From positions 1 through 43,833 of the forward strand of contig JBCDMB010000026.1 of the NCBI GenBank assembly GCA_038744685.1: a stretch of 43,833 nt of DNA, read 5' to 3'. The notes beneath the pieces were generated by a model, which was given only the letters and a program-made list of their open reading frames with translations, had not been told where the DNA came from and did not search any database. The stretch is from Verrucomicrobiota bacterium (GTDB taxonomy: Bacteria; Verrucomicrobiota; Verrucomicrobiia; Opitutales; Puniceicoccaceae). The position numbers and the translations under genes are program-made. Every line of letters begins with the position of its first letter. Position 1 is the first letter of the stretch. Below are positions 23,109 through 30,585 of the stretch, one piece after another.

Positions 23109-24140
23109 TCACCATTCACCAAGATTGATTCGATCAAGTGCAGGAATGCCGGTTATCGGGGAAAACATGATGCGGTCAGGATCGCTTACTCTCTCGTATT
23201 CGAAATACTGCAAGCCAATCGCACGTTTAAGCAATTTAAGGGTTCTCACCATAAACACTTCAGAATTCTGGGGGTTTTTCTCATCAACACTCCCATACCT
23301 CCCGGTTCCTATGAGAGACAAACGTTCGTCCCAATGAGCACTGAAAACAAAACGGAAGTTAGCTGATTCTAGGTAGATATCTTTATCGGTGATAAAAATC
23401 ACTGCCGTTCGGTCGGTTCTTTCAGGAAGCATCGCGGACACCTCTTCCATACCATGATGAAAAGACTCTGCCACATATTGGTCGCGAAACTGATTGTAGT
23501 AAGCGAAATCCATCGCGGATGCTGGCATTGCTTTTACAAATAATCCAGTGTCTTGGGAAAGCCAAGACGCCAGATCTTGCGCCAAAGGCTCCGGGAATCC
23601 GTCTAATGGAACAAGGTAAACCGCTGGCCTGTCGGAAAGAGAATGCACCGATGAATCCGTGCCGGGAGGAGGAGTTTTCTCAAAAGAGCCAGAACGTGCC
23701 CCAGAGATCGCACTTATAGTCGCTACAATCACAATCGGAACCGCAATCATTTTCAAGACTCTCAGCCAACTGCCCTTTGCAGACTCCTCATAGTCTTCCC
23801 ATATCTCAGGTGGCACCCGCTCGTTACCAAGAGCGACAGATTCGATCTCTTGGCACTCAAGATCAAGAAATGCCATGTCCTCCTCGGAAAAGGACTGGCC
23901 AAACGAATTGACGCTATATTTCGCAACTAAAAAATCTCCTTTTCGATAGACGCGGACCCTCGTCCTAACCTTGCTCATATTGAAAGACAAAAGATTACCA
24001 AAGAAACTGCCCCGCTGGAAAACCTCTTCATCCAAGGTCCCTTGGATCTTTCTAAATCCACGCTCAACCAAATATTCGGACAAACGCGTCTGACCGACAT
24101 GTTCGGATTCTTTCCATGGAATCATAATCCTCGTAAGCAT
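23109..24140 (-). CDS. Membrane protein with archaemetzincin-like domain lacking the zinc motif
   Basis: The 343-residue protein has an N-terminal region of about 125 residues without a known family, one membrane span (about 127-147, MIAVPIVIVATISAISG) and a C-terminal domain (about 170-340) that follows the archaemetzincin pattern: VYLVPLDGFPEPLAQDL, the TDKDIYLESANFRFVFSAHW equivalent of the family's T-D-x-D-L...FVFG, and IMFSPITGIPALDRI like the family's C-terminal VM-F-S...LDR. The family's HExxHxxGxxHC zinc motif aligns with KLLKRAIGLQYF, so all metal ligands are replaced and protease activity is not expected. Fold assignment is by eye. Topology suggests an extracytoplasmic domain. Met1 (24140) and Met6 are both possible starts. 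Confidence 0.6.
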   Translation of the reverse strand: MLTRIMIPWKESEHVGQTRLSEYLVERGFRKIQGTLDEEVFQRGSFFGNLLSFNMSKVRTRVRVYRKGDFLVAKYSVNSFGQSFSEEDMAFLDLECQEIESVALGNERVPPEIWEDYEESAKGSWLRVLKMIAVPIVIVATISAISGARSGSFEKTPPPGTDSSVHSLSDRPAVYLVPLDGFPEPLAQDLASWLSQDTGLFVKAMPASAMDFAYYNQFRDQYVAESFHHGMEEVSAMLPERTDRTAVIFITDKDIYLESANFRFVFSAHWDERLSLIGTGRYGSVDEKNPQNSEVFMVRTLKLLKRAIGLQYFEYERVSDPDRIMFSPITGIPALDRINLGEW

Positions 24141-24513
24141 TATTTCTTAACTAGCGCATTAGGTGGAAAGAACGCCTCGACATAATCTTCATCGATCTAT
24201 CGAGGCAAGATTACTTCCAGCAACGCCTTGAAAACAAAACCAGAAACGCTATCGAGTAGATTGCTCCGACGGTACTACGCATCGAGCTTACGAAAGAGCA
24301 GGCCAACCCCACACATCCAGAAAAGCCGAGGGTTCGGAGGCGGCTCTCGGCAGAAACGGGCGATTCGGATCGGTGTTGGAGTTGCAGGGTTCGGATTGGA
24401 ATTTCGTAAATAGTCAAGACGTGACGTCTTTCTGTCTGTCTTTAAGACGTGACGTCTTTCTGTCTGTCTTTCTGTCTTCGTGATGCAATCATTAAAGTCG
24501 AGAAGTGACGTGC
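24141..24513. other. 373-nt intergenic stretch in the accessory island
   Basis: No convincing gene was found. A 68-codon - strand frame at 24211-24417 has a hydrophobic end (YSIAFLVLFSRRCWK) but no known family and no clear ribosome-binding site. A GC-rich inverted repeat GCCGAG...CTCGGC lies near 24327-24353. The tandem palindromic repeat at 24416-24471 is the most structured part. It should also hold the promoter of the archaemetzincin-like gene. Confidence 0.4.
24416..24471. repeat. Two perfect 28-bp tandem copies with internal palindrome
   Basis: The unit runs 24416-24443 and 24444-24471 with no differences. Each unit holds the palindrome AAGACGT-G-ACGTCTT (7-bp arms, 1-nt centre) followed by TCTGTCTGTCTTT. 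A partial third TCTGTCTT run follows, and a diverged palindrome AAGTGACGTGCTT lies near 24504. The block is between the small membrane protein gene (ends 24514) and the archaemetzincin-like gene (starts 24140), both on the - strand. Confidence 0.85.
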
Positions 24514-24843
24514 TTACAGGTCTTGATCTGTTCCTGATCTCCTTGTGTTTAGACCATTTAGCATACGGCTCTGTTCCTCTGGAGGAAGTTCTTTAAATCT
24601 CAGTAATGCTCGGAAGTGGGTTAGGTATATTGGAATAGCCCCGATAAAAGTTATTAAAAAAAAGGCCAAAGACATAAAAATCGTGACGTGCTTTCCTTCT
24701 TGATAAGTCATAATTCCACAATAGTTCAAGGTGACACTTCCCACAATCCCAGCTAGAAAGCCGAGGGTAAGGCCAACTACAGGCATGGCTAAAAGAAACA
24801 GAACGAATATTCTAAGATGTTCTCGTATAAGAATAATTTTCAT
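24514..24843 (-). CDS. Small membrane protein, candidate immunity partner of the RHS protein
   Basis: This 109-residue protein has two to three hydrophobic segments (about residues 12-36 and 50-75) and a charged C-terminal tail (PPEEQSRMLNGLNTRRSG). I recognise no family. Its ATG overlaps the TGA of the RHS gene (ATGA, 24840-24843), which is the usual position of immunity genes after RHS/polymorphic toxin genes. The DNA here is visibly richer in A and T than the chromosomal genes on either side, also common for such cassettes. A membrane immunity protein would fit a membrane-acting toxin end, but this is inference from position. Confidence 0.6.
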   Translation of the reverse strand: MKIILIREHLRIFVLFLLAMPVVGLTLGFLAGIVGSVTLNYCGIMTYQEGKHVTIFMSLAFFLITFIGAIPIYLTHFRALLRFKELPPEEQSRMLNGLNTRRSGTDQDL

Positions 24844-25985
24844 TTGAAAGAATTGCCTGTAAACGAATTACTATTTCCCCAATTACCGCCAAATTCGAAG
24901 CCATTGAATCCGTAGCTTTGTGCACTTACGGGAGAGTGGAAAAAATTAGAACCGCTCGATACTAGACTACTGGCAGCAGTGCCTACCACCTGGCCTATAG
25001 TTGGGAACGAAGAGGAGTTGGAGAGTTCCAATTGGCCTGATAATATCAAACTTTTAGCTAAGCCTGTTGCTCGGGTTTTAGTTAATGCTGAGAATACAGA
25101 GGTTACACCTTCCCCAGTGAGAGATCCAAGACCGCTAAAAGTAAAACCCAATGCTGCACTTCCCAGAACGCTCTGCTGGTCGGCTTCACTCCTGAATTGA
25201 TTACGAATACCAGTGTTTACTGCCGACAAGCCTCCGCCAATGCCGGCATTCGCGAGTGTCCGAGCCCCTAATTTGCCAGCAGCACTAAAAGATGTTCTCG
25301 CAATATTTTTGGCAACTACCTGCGAAAGTCCTGCACCTGTGGCTCCTAGGGCAGCACTTCCAACAATTGAAATTATATTCACTTCACTTAGGGTTCTACG
25401 TTCGATTACGAGCTGCCCAAATAAGTCTGCAAAACCACCGATTATTGCACCGATAATTGCCAACTCCCCATCCGGATCGACATACATCAACGGGCTATTG
25501 TTCGCATACGCATACCAGTTGAGTCCTCCGTCGAAGCGGATGGGATCGCTGTTTATAAAACGCTGTAGTTCCGGTGAATAATACCGTGCGCGCATGTAGA
25601 GAAGTCCGTTTGTTTCCTGCTCGATCCCAAACTGACCCGCATAGAGATAGGGAGTATCCGTTGTTCCCATTCGATAAGTAATGGCTCCGAATGGCGAATA
25701 TTCCATCCGGTCAGTGATCTCCCCTGAATCGTTGCTCAATGCTATGGTAGAACCTGACTGATCAAAGTGATAAGTAACGGTGGCATCGATCTCGTCTACT
25801 TCGTAGAGGAGACCGATCCCGTAAACGTAGTAGGTGAGCGAACCATCCGGCTTCTCTCTTATTAGCACACGGGGAAGGGCGTCGCCGTGTGGATCGATGA
25901 CATAAGAGGTCGTGCCTATACCGTGGGTCTTCGCAACGCGGTTGTTTTCCGCATCGTACTGATAGGTGAGCCCGCCAACTCCCAT
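24840..25985 (-). CDS. RHS repeat core protein with variable C-terminal region
   Basis: The 381-residue product contains YD/RHS repeats (TYQYDAENNRVAK, TYYVYGIGLLYEVD) and the RHS core element from about residue 96 to 173: MEYSPFGAITYR, YLYAGQFGIEQETNGLLYMR, ARYYSPELQRFINSDPIRF, NWYAYANNSPLMYVDPDG. After the DPDG end the remaining 208 residues are Gly/Ala/Ser-rich with several hydrophobic stretches and no known toxin motif. In RHS proteins the core forms a shell and the C-terminal end is the effector. The ATG at 25985 overlaps the stop of the upstream gene (TGATG), but the frame stays open back to 26063 with RHS-like residues (FVSYAFDARNRL), so this gene and its neighbour look like one protein split by a frame change. 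Confidence 0.85.
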   Translation of the reverse strand: MGVGGLTYQYDAENNRVAKTHGIGTTSYVIDPHGDALPRVLIREKPDGSLTYYVYGIGLLYEVDEIDATVTYHFDQSGSTIALSNDSGEITDRMEYSPFGAITYRMGTTDTPYLYAGQFGIEQETNGLLYMRARYYSPELQRFINSDPIRFDGGLNWYAYANNSPLMYVDPDGELAIIGAIIGGFADLFGQLVIERRTLSEVNIISIVGSAALGATGAGLSQVVAKNIARTSFSAAGKLGARTLANAGIGGGLSAVNTGIRNQFRSEADQQSVLGSAALGFTFSGLGSLTGEGVTSVFSALTKTRATGLAKSLILSGQLELSNSSSFPTIGQVVGTAASSLVSSGSNFFHSPVSAQSYGFNGFEFGGNWGNSNSFTGNSFK

Positions 25986-26656
25986 CAGGCGGTTGCGTGC
26001 GTCAAACGCGTAGCTGACAAAGCTCTCTTCGGTCGGCAGAAATCCTGTAAAACTAAAGTCTCTTTATAGTGTTCGACGGTCCAATCCCATGCAATTCGTT
26101 CTGCTTCAGCAACCGGTCCCAACGGCACACCTGGTAAAGCTTCTTCAGGTAGGTTAAGCCACGAGAAACCGGTGGGTTCGAGCGAATTGAAACTGTCGTA
26201 ATTAACGATGTTCCACTCAGTTGCGTATCCGGCCGGATATCCCGCTGCTCTCAGTAAGGCGACCAGCAGTGAGGCTTGGTCGTAATCGTTGCCTGCTCCT
26301 TCAAGTAGGGTGAGACGGGCCCCCCGCTTGCTGCCATAGTAGTGCTCGTAGGTGATCGAGTTAAAAACGAACTCGGTGATTTTTGCGGGATCGTTACCAA
26401 GCGAGTTGGCGAGGGCAGTGATTTCCGGGAAAATCTGGTCCGCCACGCCACTCGTAAGGCTCACAGCAGGAACGCTGACACTGAGAGCCGTGAAGACCTC
26501 AGGACCGGATGTAGAAACTTGAATCGCATCGATGATTTGATTCTCTGGATCGGAATAGTCGACACCGGATTCGAATTCCCAGTCTTGGGCGTTCACCAAT
26601 TTGAGAGAGAGGAACAGCAAGAGTCCTGCGAGAGTATAGTCTCTGAGGGATTTCAT
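25985..26656 (-). CDS. Exported transglutaminase-like protein, N-terminal part of a split RHS protein
   Basis: The 223-residue product begins with a signal peptide (residues 1-23, cut after VNA). Residues about 75-150 resemble the transglutaminase-like domain that precedes RHS repeats in many exported proteins: EFVFNSITYEHYYGSKRGAR, then LLEGAGNDYDQASLLVALLR and GYPAGYATEW. The position of the catalytic Cys of true transglutaminases is Asp124, so cross-linking activity is not expected. The last 15 or so residues (CRPKRALSATRLTHATA) are the out-of-frame reading of RHS sequence that continues correctly in the next gene, which points to a frameshift between 25988 and 26063. It could be a true split with TGATG coupling, a pseudogene, or an assembly error. 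Confidence 0.7.
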   Translation of the reverse strand: MKSLRDYTLAGLLLFLSLKLVNAQDWEFESGVDYSDPENQIIDAIQVSTSGPEVFTALSVSVPAVSLTSGVADQIFPEITALANSLGNDPAKITEFVFNSITYEHYYGSKRGARLTLLEGAGNDYDQASLLVALLRAAGYPAGYATEWNIVNYDSFNSLEPTGFSWLNLPEEALPGVPLGPVAEAERIAWDWTVEHYKETLVLQDFCRPKRALSATRLTHATA

Positions 26657-26681
26657 AGGATTTTGGTAAAACTGTATGGAA

Positions 26682-27365
26682 CTATTGCGCGGCCTCTACA
26701 TTGCCCTCGGCGTCGTAGCTCAAGGTTCGTGGATTATCCTTCAGCTGGTGGGTCAGCAACCAACCGCGATCATCATAGGTGTATTGGTCCACCATAAAAA
26801 CATGGTCTGCGGACTGGTCGATTGTTGGATCCGTCCGGGCTAGCCACTCGTATTTATCCAAGATTCCGTCGCCGTCATAGTCACCGCTCCCATCGCGGGA
26901 TAGATCGCCAAAGTGGTATTGCTCCCAATAGTCCGGCAGTCCATCTGGTTCGCTGTCGGCAACGGTCTCAGCGGCGAAGATGTCGAAAGGGGGTCCTGCA
27001 ACCAGTTCATCCCCATTACTGATGCCATCCTGATCCGCATCGAGAATGTAAGGGGGCGAGTTGGTATCGTCGGTGAAACTGAGGCGAAAAAAGAGGCGGT
27101 CAGCGGTCGTATCGAATTGAATCCCGGCTACATCGTCATCGCCGATGGTGGCATAACGAAACCAGCTCCAATCCATGAGGTCCGTCGATTGCTGAATAAA
27201 ATAATAGTGATCAAGACGACTGAACCAACGGAGAGAGTAGGGCTTTGTGCCTCCCGGATCAATATGCTCAAGGACGAGGCCTTCGTTCAGGTCGTCCGAG
27301 GATTGCGCCGCTAGAATTGCCGGCGCGACGAGTCCTAGAAGCATAGAGTTTACTCGATTGTTCAT
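26682..27365 (-). CDS. Exported Asp-repeat protein ending in a YD motif
   Basis: The 227-residue product has a signal peptide (about residues 1-20, cut after AILA). Residues 35-100 form a beta-rich region of the kind common in verrucomicrobial exported proteins (DHYYFIQQSTDLMDWSWF). Residues about 105-180 carry calcium-binding thrombospondin-3-like Asp repeats (DADQDGISNGDEL, DYDGDGILDKYEWLARTDP). The end is a single YD/RHS-type motif (YTYDDRGWLLTHQLKDN, LSYDAEGNVEAAQ), then TAG. It lies 9 nt after the upstream exported protein and 25 nt before the transglutaminase-like gene, so it shares their operon. Whether it once continued into the RHS protein or works as a separate partner is open. Confidence 0.75.
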   Translation of the reverse strand: MNNRVNSMLLGLVAPAILAAQSSDDLNEGLVLEHIDPGGTKPYSLRWFSRLDHYYFIQQSTDLMDWSWFRYATIGDDDVAGIQFDTTADRLFFRLSFTDDTNSPPYILDADQDGISNGDELVAGPPFDIFAAETVADSEPDGLPDYWEQYHFGDLSRDGSGDYDGDGILDKYEWLARTDPTIDQSADHVFMVDQYTYDDRGWLLTHQLKDNPRTLSYDAEGNVEAAQ

Positions 27366-27374
27366 GGGTTTGCC

Positions 27375-28256
27375 TTACCGGATTGGAGAGAAGTTTATGA
27401 TTATGTCTTTCTCGACGGGGGGGTTTGCTTCTTTCCAACGCTTATGGGCGGCGGCTAGGGCCTCGCGGCGTTGGTAGAGAACTTTGAGTCGGTCCTCGTT
27501 TGCAGCATAGTATCGATGGAGTGCGTCCAGTTGCTCAAAAAGTTCTTCAGGAACGGCTTCTTCGCTTTTGGCGTACACGATATATTCTGGAGTCGTAGAA
27601 GAAAAGAGACTTGGGTCGGGTCCGGTTTTGGGTCGGTAGGTTGTTCCAAATAATCTGGCTCGCTCGCTCAAGTCCTGTTCTTGCTCCGAGTCGATGTTCC
27701 CGACCATCATCAAGGAACTCCAATGTGCAGCCTCATCCTCAAATGAAGCGAAGCCACTCAAGTAATTGAAATCAATGTTGCTGACGGCCTTAATCTGCCG
27801 GCCGGTTTCATCGCGATAGAGAATCTCGGAAATCTTTCGGTCGTAGACTGTAACCGAGAGTGATATAGTTCGATAGGGGCGTTCATCTAAGAACTCGTAG
27901 GGGAAAAGATCGCTTTCCCGCAAAGACCGGTTTTCAACTAAATCAGGCTTCAAGGGTGTTGGTCGGGCTAGAACCAGTGGACCTGCTGTCTCCCGTATGA
28001 TCATTCGGGCAGACTTCTCCGGAGAGATCTTGTAGGTCGAAACGAACAAAGGCGTTTCGTTCAGAAGGGTCGACCGCTTCTCTGCTTCCCTATCAGCTCT
28101 CTCGGTCATCTTCCGCTCGACGATCAGGTCGGCCTCCGATTCGTTCAAATGGTGGTTTCCGGAGAGCGACGGATTTTCTCCTGCTAATTTAGATAAACTT
28201 ACAAATATAGTTAAAAATATAATTATTGCTAATTTCTTAATAACGAACCTTGACAA
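27375..28256 (-). CDS. Unknown exported protein, first gene of the RHS operon
   Basis: The 293-residue product has a hydrophobic N-terminal signal or anchor (about residues 7-22, LAIIIFLTIFVSLSKL). The rest is charged, with an acidic/basic helical stretch near 45-65 and 265-280 (YQRREALAAAHKRWKEANPP). I recognise no family. The start is TTG at 28256: an in-frame TGA lies five codons upstream and no ATG or GTG precedes the signal segment. The first 60 nt are very AT-rich, unlike the body of the gene. The next gene begins 9 nt after its stop. Its place at the head of the run suggests an export, display or processing role for the RHS products; that is inference. Confidence 0.65.
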   Translation of the reverse strand: MSRFVIKKLAIIIFLTIFVSLSKLAGENPSLSGNHHLNESEADLIVERKMTERADREAEKRSTLLNETPLFVSTYKISPEKSARMIIRETAGPLVLARPTPLKPDLVENRSLRESDLFPYEFLDERPYRTISLSVTVYDRKISEILYRDETGRQIKAVSNIDFNYLSGFASFEDEAAHWSSLMMVGNIDSEQEQDLSERARLFGTTYRPKTGPDPSLFSSTTPEYIVYAKSEEAVPEELFEQLDALHRYYAANEDRLKVLYQRREALAAAHKRWKEANPPVEKDIIINFSPIR

Positions 28257-28318
28257 ACTAGGATTATGTCAACGGGTTTTGGCGTCAATGTTAATTTTAC
28301 GGACTGTAGTCCGTTAAC
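28250..28318. promoter_or_regulatory. Two inverted repeats between the RHS operon and the XRE regulator
   Basis: TTGACA (28250-28255) and TGTCAA (28267-28272) form a 6-bp inverted repeat spaced by 11 nt; it overlaps the TTG start of the RHS operon and looks like an operator or -35 element on either strand. ACGGACT (28299-28305) and AGTCCGT (28308-28314) form a 7-bp repeat with a 2-nt centre, 35 nt before the regulator start. Either could bind the XRE protein encoded next to them. Confidence 0.4.
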
Positions 28319-28348
28319 ATCATCGCCCCGGGGGTGTATCCATGAAGG

Positions 28349-28570
28349 GTGCGTGTTGATCAAAAAGTTCTCGACAAGCTGGGGGAAAACATCAGGCGGG
28401 AGCGTGTAGCGGCAAAACTAACGCAGGAAAAGCTTTCCGAAAAAGTTGGAATGGATATTACCAATCTTCAACGAATCGAGTCTGGCCGCTACAATACCAA
28501 GGTCACGACACTCGTTCGTTTGAGAAATGTATTGGGAGTAGATTGGGAAGCACTCCTGCCGGATCAGTAA
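28349..28570 (+). CDS. XRE family helix-turn-helix regulator
   Basis: The 73-residue protein is a single HTH_3/XRE domain: LGENIRRERVAAKLTQEKLS, VGMDITNLQRIESGRYN (recognition helix and following turn), then TLVRLRNVLGVDWEALL. Such proteins bind operators as dimers; this one has no second ligand or protease domain, like phage Cro/C-type controllers and toxin-antitoxin antitoxins. The start is GTG at 28349; an ATG at 28342 is out of frame and runs into a stop. It is divergent from the RHS operon with inverted repeats in the shared 92-nt region, so it is the obvious candidate regulator of that operon. Confidence 0.85.
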   Translation: MRVDQKVLDKLGENIRRERVAAKLTQEKLSEKVGMDITNLQRIESGRYNTKVTTLVRLRNVLGVDWEALLPDQ

Positions 28571-29529: not shown

Positions 29530-30585
29530 TCACCTTCGGGTAAATTCACAGGAATGGCAGGCAAAGCCAGCACCGAAAGACGTAGCCCACGCATTGAGCG
29601 GCCCGCTCTTTGTATTCTCTAGGAAACGTTCGAGCGCAAACAACACGGAGGGACTACTCATGTTTCCAAATTCCGCGAGAATCGATCGGGAATGACTTAA
29701 ATCGGGAGATCCCAAGGCTTTCTCCACCTCGTCTAGGACATCGCGCCCACCCGCATGAGAGAGAATATCGACATTGTCGTTCATCCTACTATCGAAGAGT
29801 GTCTTCACTGCGGTCGCAGCCTTTTCTGGAACTGATCGATGCAAGCGATTCCGAAGTTTGCCTTCCGCATTTTCGAACCGTAAGAGATCACGGTCCTCCG
29901 GAACGTGAAGAGTGTCAAAATGGCTGCAGTGGACCGCCTCTCCGTTTAAACCTGAAGGAGACCCCTTCCATACCGACGCTGCTGCCCCATCGCCAAACAA
30001 GCAAAGACTAATCAAAACCCCGGGATCATCATCCAGGTAAAATGCAGCCGAGCAAATTTCGACAGCCACGCAAGCTATCGTCAGTTCCGGATCGGTCTTG
30101 GCTAGTGCATGTGCCTGCCTCAATAGCGGTATCGCAGCGCCGCATCCCAGTCCAACCACATCAGAAAGAAAGACATCCGAGCGCATCCCCATTTCTTCTG
30201 CCACGTAGCTGGAAACGCCCGGACACAGGTAACCCGTGCAAGTGCAGATGAGCAAAGCGTCGACGTCTTGCGGCTTCACATAAGACCGTCTCAATGCCGA
30301 ATCCAGAGCGGTTGTTGCCAAGCGGGGAGCCTCTCTCTCGAATCCCCGATTCAATTCCTCGGCATCCAGGTCAAACAGCCTCTCTACTTGAGGCATCGCG
30401 AAATGGCGTGTTCCTATTCCGTTGTCGCCGGTAAGAACTTTCTCCAAAAGCCGCTTAGACCGGTCTTTTAGAGGTTTGAACTGTTCGCTGGCCTGCAAAA
30501 TTTCCCAACAGTCCGCTTGGGAGAAGCGAGCTTCCGGAGTCTGGCATGAGATTCCCTGCAAATACACTCTCTGCACATCGCACAA
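29530..30585 (-). CDS. Type III polyketide synthase (chalcone synthase-like)
   Basis: The 351-residue protein is a homodimer-type condensing enzyme that extends an acyl-CoA starter with malonyl-CoA and cyclises the chain. The catalytic triad is complete: Cys148 in SDVVGLGCGAAIPLL, His277 in DILSHAGGRDVL and Asn308 in LAEFGNMSSPSVLFA. Thiolase-fold elements LLICTCTGYLCPGVSSYV and SLCLFGDGAAASVW are typical. The length fits bacterial members. The partners often found with it (a methyltransferase or an FAD oxidoreductase) are absent: it converges with tlyA and is divergent from an unknown exported protein gene. Likely products are alkylpyrones, alkylresorcinols or similar phenolic lipids; the sequence does not decide. 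Confidence 0.93.
   Translation of the reverse strand: MCDVQRVYLQGISCQTPEARFSQADCWEILQASEQFKPLKDRSKRLLEKVLTGDNGIGTRHFAMPQVERLFDLDAEELNRGFEREAPRLATTALDSALRRSYVKPQDVDALLICTCTGYLCPGVSSYVAEEMGMRSDVFLSDVVGLGCGAAIPLLRQAHALAKTDPELTIACVAVEICSAAFYLDDDPGVLISLCLFGDGAAASVWKGSPSGLNGEAVHCSHFDTLHVPEDRDLLRFENAEGKLRNRLHRSVPEKAATAVKTLFDSRMNDNVDILSHAGGRDVLDEVEKALGSPDLSHSRSILAEFGNMSSPSVLFALERFLENTKSGPLNAWATSFGAGFACHSCEFTRR

What the first reader, a model, noticed from the sequence alone, without database searches (positions are those of the whole stretch)
24514..28570. Possible split RHS surface or toxin system with its own regulator
Five tightly packed - strand genes (gaps of 9, 25, overlap, overlap) encode three exported proteins, an RHS core with a non-conserved end, and a small membrane protein, headed by a divergent XRE gene. 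The RHS work seems shared between separate polypeptides: an Asp-repeat protein ending in one YD motif, a transglutaminase-like protein and the RHS core. Each of the first three carries its own signal sequence. I do not know this exact layout as a described system.
Basis: partly seen in the sequence, partly recalled or inferred. Interest (0 to 1): 0.65.

Follow-up and report, generated by a model that had tools for sequence, protein, structure and literature searches.

The report
Broken RHS toxin in swappable cassette
This is one copy of a recurring bacterial gene cassette that seems to export a large caged toxin with helper proteins and its own switch gene; in this genome the toxin gene has lost its middle and is probably disarmed, but the cassette layout itself looks new and worth testing.

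Summary
The genes are as described; relatives separate design from decay. In related Verrucomicrobiota the transglutaminase-like part and the RHS core are one protein of about 2,040-2,115 residues. Here about 1,460-1,490 residues are missing and the frame changes at the join (window ~26,048-26,090), so that split is a remnant, not a design. The rest holds up: the exported first protein (N), the Asp-repeat protein (D) ending in a YD unit as a gene separate from the transglutaminase-RHS gene, a small gene close behind, and a divergent XRE gene all recur in other genera. A divergent XRE-like ORF lies within 400 bp of 22 of 37 N genes, against 1 of 279 control ORFs. The RHS core is 75% identical to a relative's, while the C-terminus and membrane protein have no relative in 371 other genomes. 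Two of 12 relatives examined carry recognised nuclease toxin domains, one beside a SUKH immunity-type gene. So this is a polymorphic-toxin locus. Unexpectedly, XRE type and cargo type vary independently of N: a mix-and-match cassette. My paper searches found no description of it. The window copy is probably inactive as a toxin; an assembly fault is not excluded.

The parts
28349..28570 (+). Divergent XRE-type regulator gene (73 aa)
   Evidence: HTH_3 E 2.6e-12; a divergent XRE-like ORF sits next to 22 of 37 N genes; 83.6% identical to the XRE of L025
28299..28314 (.). Candidate operator: 16-bp inverted repeat (7-bp arms) between the XRE and N genes
   Evidence: Only occurrence in the genome at up to 1 mismatch; identical in L025; inverted repeats at a similar distance from the XRE start in 11 of 23 regions
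27375..28256 (-). N: exported protein of unknown fold (293 aa)
   Evidence: N profile matches 27 of 372 order genomes and 19 of 387 phylum genomes; no Pfam, NCBIfam or PDB match
26682..27365 (-). D: exported protein with beta domain, Asp-rich TSP3-like repeats and a YD tail (227 aa)
   Evidence: Alignment A5 with L066, L074, L080; the YD-tailed form is seen in 6 loci
25985..26656 (-). 5' remnant of a transglutaminase-RHS gene: signal sequence and part of the transglutaminase-like domain; the last codons read RHS DNA out of frame
   Evidence: Transglut_core E 4.7e-9; matches residues 30-190 of L074; active-site Cys position is Asp
26048..26090 (.). Stretch holding the join left by the missing middle of the RHS gene
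   Evidence: L074 and L080 matches stop at 26090 or 26186 in one frame and resume at 26030 or 26048 in another; both frames shown
24840..25985 (-). 3' remnant of the RHS gene: core end (about 173 aa) and variable C-terminus (about 208 aa)
   Evidence: Rhs_assc_core; core 74.6% and C-terminus 28.9% identical to L066, shuffled C-terminus 28.1%; matches only the end of solved RHS shells
24514..24843 (-). Small membrane protein (109 aa), candidate immunity protein
   Evidence: 4-nt overlap with the RHS ORF; hydrophobic segments; no relative in 371 other genomes

Best explanation
A Verrucomicrobiota polymorphic-toxin cassette whose RHS gene is broken in this genome. Inferred working of an intact copy: the XRE protein binds an inverted repeat in the shared promoter region and holds down its own gene and the operon. 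When released, three proteins leave by their signal sequences: N (unknown fold), D (beta domain, Asp-repeat rod, YD tail) and a transglutaminase-RHS protein of about 2,040-2,115 residues, whose YD shell encloses a variable C-terminal toxin that is cut off at the DPxG core. The YD tail of D probably docks on the RHS shell; the transglutaminase-like domain, mostly without its Cys, probably anchors or caps; the small protein behind protects the producer. Shown by sequence: gene order, conserved core with variable ends, toxin and immunity-type domains in some relatives, recurrence of the regulator, and the missing middle here. Inferred: export, docking, repression, toxicity, immunity. Here only the head genes, the last ~15% of a shell, the C-terminus and the small protein remain, so toxin delivery is probably lost.
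For: One-ORF relatives and missing residues; only the shell's end left; no close copy of the middle elsewhere in the assembly. Variable C-terminus and partner on a conserved core. GH-E nuclease in L080 with a SUKH-1 gene behind it; Tox-HNH-HHH in L148. 15 of 19 RHS-like giants have a same-strand ORF close behind. XRE at 22 of 37 N genes against 1 of 279 controls. YD-tailed D before transglutaminase-RHS.
Against: The window C-terminus matches no known toxin family, nor do 10 of the 12 relatives examined; only 1 of 10 downstream genes tested matches an immunity family. 15 of 37 N genes have no XRE nearby, and singly only 2 of 23 inverted repeats are significant. 14 labelled N loci carry cargo other than RHS, so N is not specific to toxins. 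The D model is poor (pLDDT 61), so docking is unsupported by structure. The XRE profile was trained on genes next to N.
Confidence: 0.6

Rival explanations
1. The split is functional: separate transglutaminase-like and short RHS proteins work together by design.
For: Tight packing with a TGATG stop-start overlap; in L066 the two parts are also in different frames.
Against: RHS homology runs 45-63 nt upstream of the 381-aa ORF's start, inside the 223-aa ORF in another frame, and about 1,460-1,490 residues are missing; in L066 nothing is missing, so that is a frame change in an otherwise full gene. L074, L080, L140 and G002 have one ORF.
Confidence: 0.05
2. The missing middle is an assembly fault and the real gene is full length.
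For: RHS genes are repetitive; two other contigs of this assembly end inside near-identical N genes (99.3% over 144 nt).
Against: No contig holds a close copy of the missing part; the contig runs through the join without a gap. Reads cannot be examined here.
Confidence: 0.15
3. Not a simple deletion: an orphan RHS C-terminus/immunity module recombined behind a truncated transglutaminase-RHS gene, as part of the cargo exchange seen in the family.
For: The core is closest to L066 (73.9%), while the transglutaminase part is closest to L080 and G002 by identity (54.5% over 66 and 48.1% over 81 residues) and 33% to L066. Cargo type changes at least 9 times on the N tree. Orphan modules are described in rhs loci (PMC3150448, passages).
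Against: A single deletion explains the same layout with one event; only one RHS locus remains at this place.
Confidence: 0.15
4. The family is a surface or adhesion system, not a toxin system; the nuclease domains are exceptions.
For: 14 labelled loci carry non-RHS cargo with Ig-like, lectin-like or beta-helix matches; 10 of 12 RHS C-termini examined match no toxin family.
Against: Conserved core with C-termini and small partners that change and two clear nuclease domains, one with a SUKH gene.
Confidence: 0.1

Closest known systems
RHS polymorphic toxins with an N-terminal inactive transglutaminase domain (Zhang et al. 2012, PMC3482391; passages seen)
   Same: Signal sequence, transglutaminase-like domain that lost catalytic residues, RHS repeats, variable C-terminal toxin
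   Different: The passages seen do not mention the N protein, the YD-tailed D protein or the divergent XRE gene; the window copy lacks most of the shell
T6SS Rhs effectors such as RhsA (PMC8765631; abstract and passages seen)
   Same: RHS core that ends the shell; variable C-terminus behind it
   Different: No PAAR match in the window proteins; signal sequences suggest Sec export
Tc toxins, BC components (sequence match to solved chains)
   Same: An RHS system spread over separate polypeptides; the core matches the TccC end
   Different: The separate partner here is a TSP3-type protein with a short YD tail; no other Tc-type subunit was matched among the window proteins
Orphan rhs-CT/rhsI modules (PMC3150448; passages seen)
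   Same: What is left here: core end, C-terminus and a small downstream gene
   Different: The head genes and the 5' end of a transglutaminase-RHS gene still stand upstream

Membership tests
RHS polymorphic toxin | RHS-associated core | tested here: met
   TIGR03696, E 3e-22, residues 96-173
RHS polymorphic toxin | Full YD-repeat shell | tested here: not met
   Window: about 1,460-1,490 residues missing, only the last ~160 residues of solved shells matched. Relatives L065, L066, L074, L080 have the repeats
RHS polymorphic toxin | C-terminus varies on a conserved core | tested here: met
   74.6% against 28.9% (shuffle 28.1%) with L066; no C-terminus relative in 371 other genomes
RHS polymorphic toxin | Small immunity gene directly behind | tested here: inconclusive
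   Position fits (4-nt overlap; 14 of 19 giants have an ORF within 20 nt), but only L080's next gene matches an immunity-type family, of 10 tested
RHS polymorphic toxin | Toxicity relieved by the partner | not testable with these tools
   Needs an experiment
T6SS Rhs effector | PAAR or similar T6SS domain | tested here: not met
   No such match among the window proteins of the locus
Tc toxin BC component | TcB- and TcC-type subunits beside a TcA | tested here: not met
   No such Pfam match among the nine window proteins scanned; only the RHS core end resembles TccC
XRE-regulated operon | Divergent XRE gene retained with the operon in relatives | tested here: met
   22 of 37 N genes against 1 of 279 control ORFs; absent at 15 of 37
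XRE-regulated operon | Binding to and repression at the intergenic repeat | not testable with these tools
   Candidate repeat only

The most novel reading that the evidence does not exclude
A new modular export cassette of Verrucomicrobiota: a fixed exported head (N plus the start of D) framed by exchangeable parts, a private XRE/operator switch on one side and interchangeable cargo (RHS toxins or other large exported proteins) on the other. In one RHS version the D protein completes or tethers the RHS shell in trans through its YD tail, a two-protein RHS cage unlike TcB/TcC. Private switches would let several copies in one genome be turned on separately.
Probability: 0.3. Interest if true: 0.75.

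Novelty: new variant of a known kind. Interest (0 to 1): 0.55.

Why it matters
RHS toxins are best known from T6SS and Tc systems. How signal-sequence RHS toxins of Verrucomicrobiota are assembled and controlled is, to my knowledge, open. This locus names concrete partners (N, and D with a YD tail) and a regulator with a candidate operator, all testable in laboratory E. coli. The exchange of both regulator and cargo around a fixed exported head is unusual and could explain how one genome keeps several such loci under separate control.

Tried and rejected
Designed separation of transglutaminase-like and RHS proteins: rejected. A close copy of the missing middle elsewhere in the genome: not found; the other RHS matches there are 26-38% identical. 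Synteny: from 28772 rightwards the window is shared with G002 and G003 and partly with G001, but no window gene left of it matched in the stretches fetched there, so no empty site was read. Fold of N: model pLDDT 71, no PDB fold match at E 0.001 or better and no PDB sequence match. Fold of D: pLDDT 61; many Fn3-like folds among its weak matches, best E of any match 0.02. Anti-phage defence: only the XRE matched, to regulator models. TMEM238 on the small protein is under the cut-off and is not used. My first XRE pattern was too strict and missed the window's own gene; a profile replaced it. XRE identities of 25-33% I take as noise.

Limits of the counts. The XRE profile was trained on genes upstream of N, which leans towards the 22 of 37; the 279 control ORFs were scored with the same profile. 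Dropped before counts: L146, L147, L150 as duplicates; L090, L093, L095 as duplicates, not in the set; N genes with under 600 bp upstream. Not all N matches were fetched. Cargo labels were set by hand for 29 of 39 rows; the tree is a quick one with four long rows (L078, L151, L154, L155). The Cys count uses 6 of the 8 proteins; in L024 the pattern hit another place and in L065 it hit nothing. One search listed only part of its matches.
Full report
What is there. Domain searches give XRE (73 aa), Transglut_core (223 aa), sub-threshold TSP3 and RHS repeats (227 aa) and the RHS-associated core (381 aa). The 293-aa protein, here N, matches nothing in Pfam or NCBIfam and nothing significant in the PDB by fold or sequence. 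The 227-aa protein is called D.

The RHS gene is broken. In same-genus genome G002 the transglutaminase-like part and the RHS core lie in one 2,115-aa ORF; in L074, L080 and L140 in ORFs of 2,074, 2,075 and 2,037 aa. A translated search of the window with the L074 protein covers residues 30-190 in one frame and 1653-1985 in another; with L080, residues 81-179 and 1672-1864. About 1,460-1,490 residues are missing. RHS homology starts 45-63 nt upstream of the 381-aa ORF's start, inside the 223-aa ORF but in another frame, so the end of the 223-aa protein is RHS DNA read out of frame. Against solved RHS shells only the last stretch is left, for example residues 993-1151 of a 1,152-residue chain. 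The missing part has no close copy elsewhere in the assembly. An assembly fault is not excluded. In L066, nearest by RHS core, the two parts are also in different frames but nothing is missing, so that is a frame change in an otherwise full gene.

The rest of the layout is conserved. A profile of N matches 27 of 372 genomes of the order, in 15 of 100 genera, and 19 of 387 drawn from the phylum, 10 of them outside the order. Of nine loci from named genome records, six titles name Opitutales or Puniceicoccaceae, one Verrucomicrobiia, one Verrucomicrobiota and one Chthoniobacter. Of 39 distinct N genes read, 31 have as next same-strand ORF one that matches the D profile, 29 of these within 30 nt or overlapping; one more has N and D in a single ORF; seven have no D-profile match, though in one of these (L025) BLAST finds a D-like ORF. 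In six D proteins (window, L066, L074, L080, L139, L140) the chain ends just after the same YD unit. Behind it L074, L080 and L140 have an intact transglutaminase-RHS ORF, L066 a frame-changed one, L139 runs off its contig in a transglutaminase-like start, and the window has the broken one. A longer protein in G002 ends alike before its RHS gene. Other D proteins lack the tail, including some followed by other RHS genes (L024, L065, L148, L149, L154, L155, L158). So the separate YD-ended protein is a real feature of one subfamily.

It is a toxin-type locus. The window RHS core is 74.6% identical to L066 over 173 residues, while the C-termini are 28.9% identical, the level of shuffled sequence (28.1%). 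The window C-terminus and the 109-aa protein have no relative in the other 371 of 372 genomes. Of 19 RHS-like giants, 15 have a same-strand ORF within 250 nt behind, 14 of them within 20 nt, and 11 of the 15 have a hydrophobic segment. L080 carries PT-TG and GH-E nuclease domains and is followed by a SUKH-1 gene; L148 carries Tox-HNH-HHH. These are 2 of 12 relatives examined; the other 10, and the window, gave no toxin match, and 9 of 10 downstream genes gave no immunity match. The Cys of the transglutaminase-like domain is replaced in 5 of the 6 proteins where its place could be read, as Zhang et al. 2012 describe for RHS toxins (PMC3482391, passages).

The regulator belongs to it. A divergent XRE-like ORF lies within 400 bp of 22 of 37 N genes with at least 600 bp upstream, against 1 of 279 other ORFs of 200 aa or more in the same loci; that one precedes a YD-tailed D gene with no N between (L140). 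Between the window's XRE and N genes is a 16-bp inverted repeat found nowhere else in the genome at up to one mismatch and identical in L025. In 11 of 23 such regions the best inverted repeat is centred 38.5-45 nt from the XRE start (100 simulations: mean 5.3, maximum 9 in any stretch of that width), with different sequences in different loci. Singly only 2 of 23, the window's and L025's, reach p 0.05.

Mix and match. On the N tree (39 rows, 29 labelled by hand) RHS and other cargo change at least 9 times and are no more clustered than chance (193 of 500 shuffles as low). L074 and L097 have N proteins 76% identical but different cargo and XREs 29% identical; window and L025 have XREs 84% identical but N proteins 38.5% identical; over 253 pairs XRE and N identity are uncorrelated (rho -0.06). 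Position is kept while regulator and cargo are exchanged. The non-RHS cargo is mostly unnamed, with Ig-like, lectin-like, beta-helix, weak hydrolase and weak CHAT matches.

How it works. I infer export of N, D and the RHS protein by their signal sequences (judged by eye), a closed RHS shell with the toxin cut off at the core as in RhsA (PMC8765631, abstract and passages), D docking by its YD tail, protection by the small protein, and XRE autorepression. None of these steps is shown. In this genome the shell is gone; the leftover core end, C-terminus and small protein resemble the orphan modules described in rhs loci (PMC3150448, passages). Whether one deletion or a recombination made this is open: the core is closest to L066, the transglutaminase part to L080 and G002.

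Novelty. Transglutaminase-RHS polymorphic toxins are known. Paper searches (listings seen) showed no title or abstract start describing an N/D/XRE cassette; Opitutales with Rhs gave 0 papers. The library holds open-licence papers only, so this is weak evidence of absence. I rate it a new variant of a known kind, with a broken copy in this window.

Noticed in passing
window 24416-24471: Two exact head-to-tail copies of a 28-nt unit just downstream of the small membrane-protein gene.
   Followed up: no
window 23109-24140: Next gene downstream weakly matches archaemetzincin (E 2.6e-8, under the model's cut-off).
   Followed up: no
L085:1-216 and the end of L086 (G000 contigs C45 and C20): Two further N genes cut by contig ends, 99.3% identical over 144 nt, so this genome holds more copies of the cassette head than the window's.
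   Followed up: partly
L082:1-4677: N and D matches in one 1,559-aa ORF, a possible fusion, at a contig edge.
   Followed up: no
window 24840-25985, L066, L074, L080, L155: These RHS C-termini, otherwise unlike each other, all end in Phe-Lys; L140 ends differently.
   Followed up: no
L140:7064-7735: A YD-tailed D gene with a divergent XRE 177 bp upstream and no N gene between.
   Followed up: no
L067:2857-6474 and L076:3971-7102: Non-RHS cargo behind the same head with weak alpha/beta-hydrolase (DUF900) and CHAT matches, both under the cut-off.
   Followed up: partly
window 29530-30585: A type III polyketide synthase-like gene beside the FtsJ-like gene, an order shared with G001, G002 and G003.
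   Followed up: no
G000 contig C4, about 96298-96672 (L101): A 298-aa open frame with an RHS core match, perhaps another short RHS remnant in this genome.
   Followed up: no
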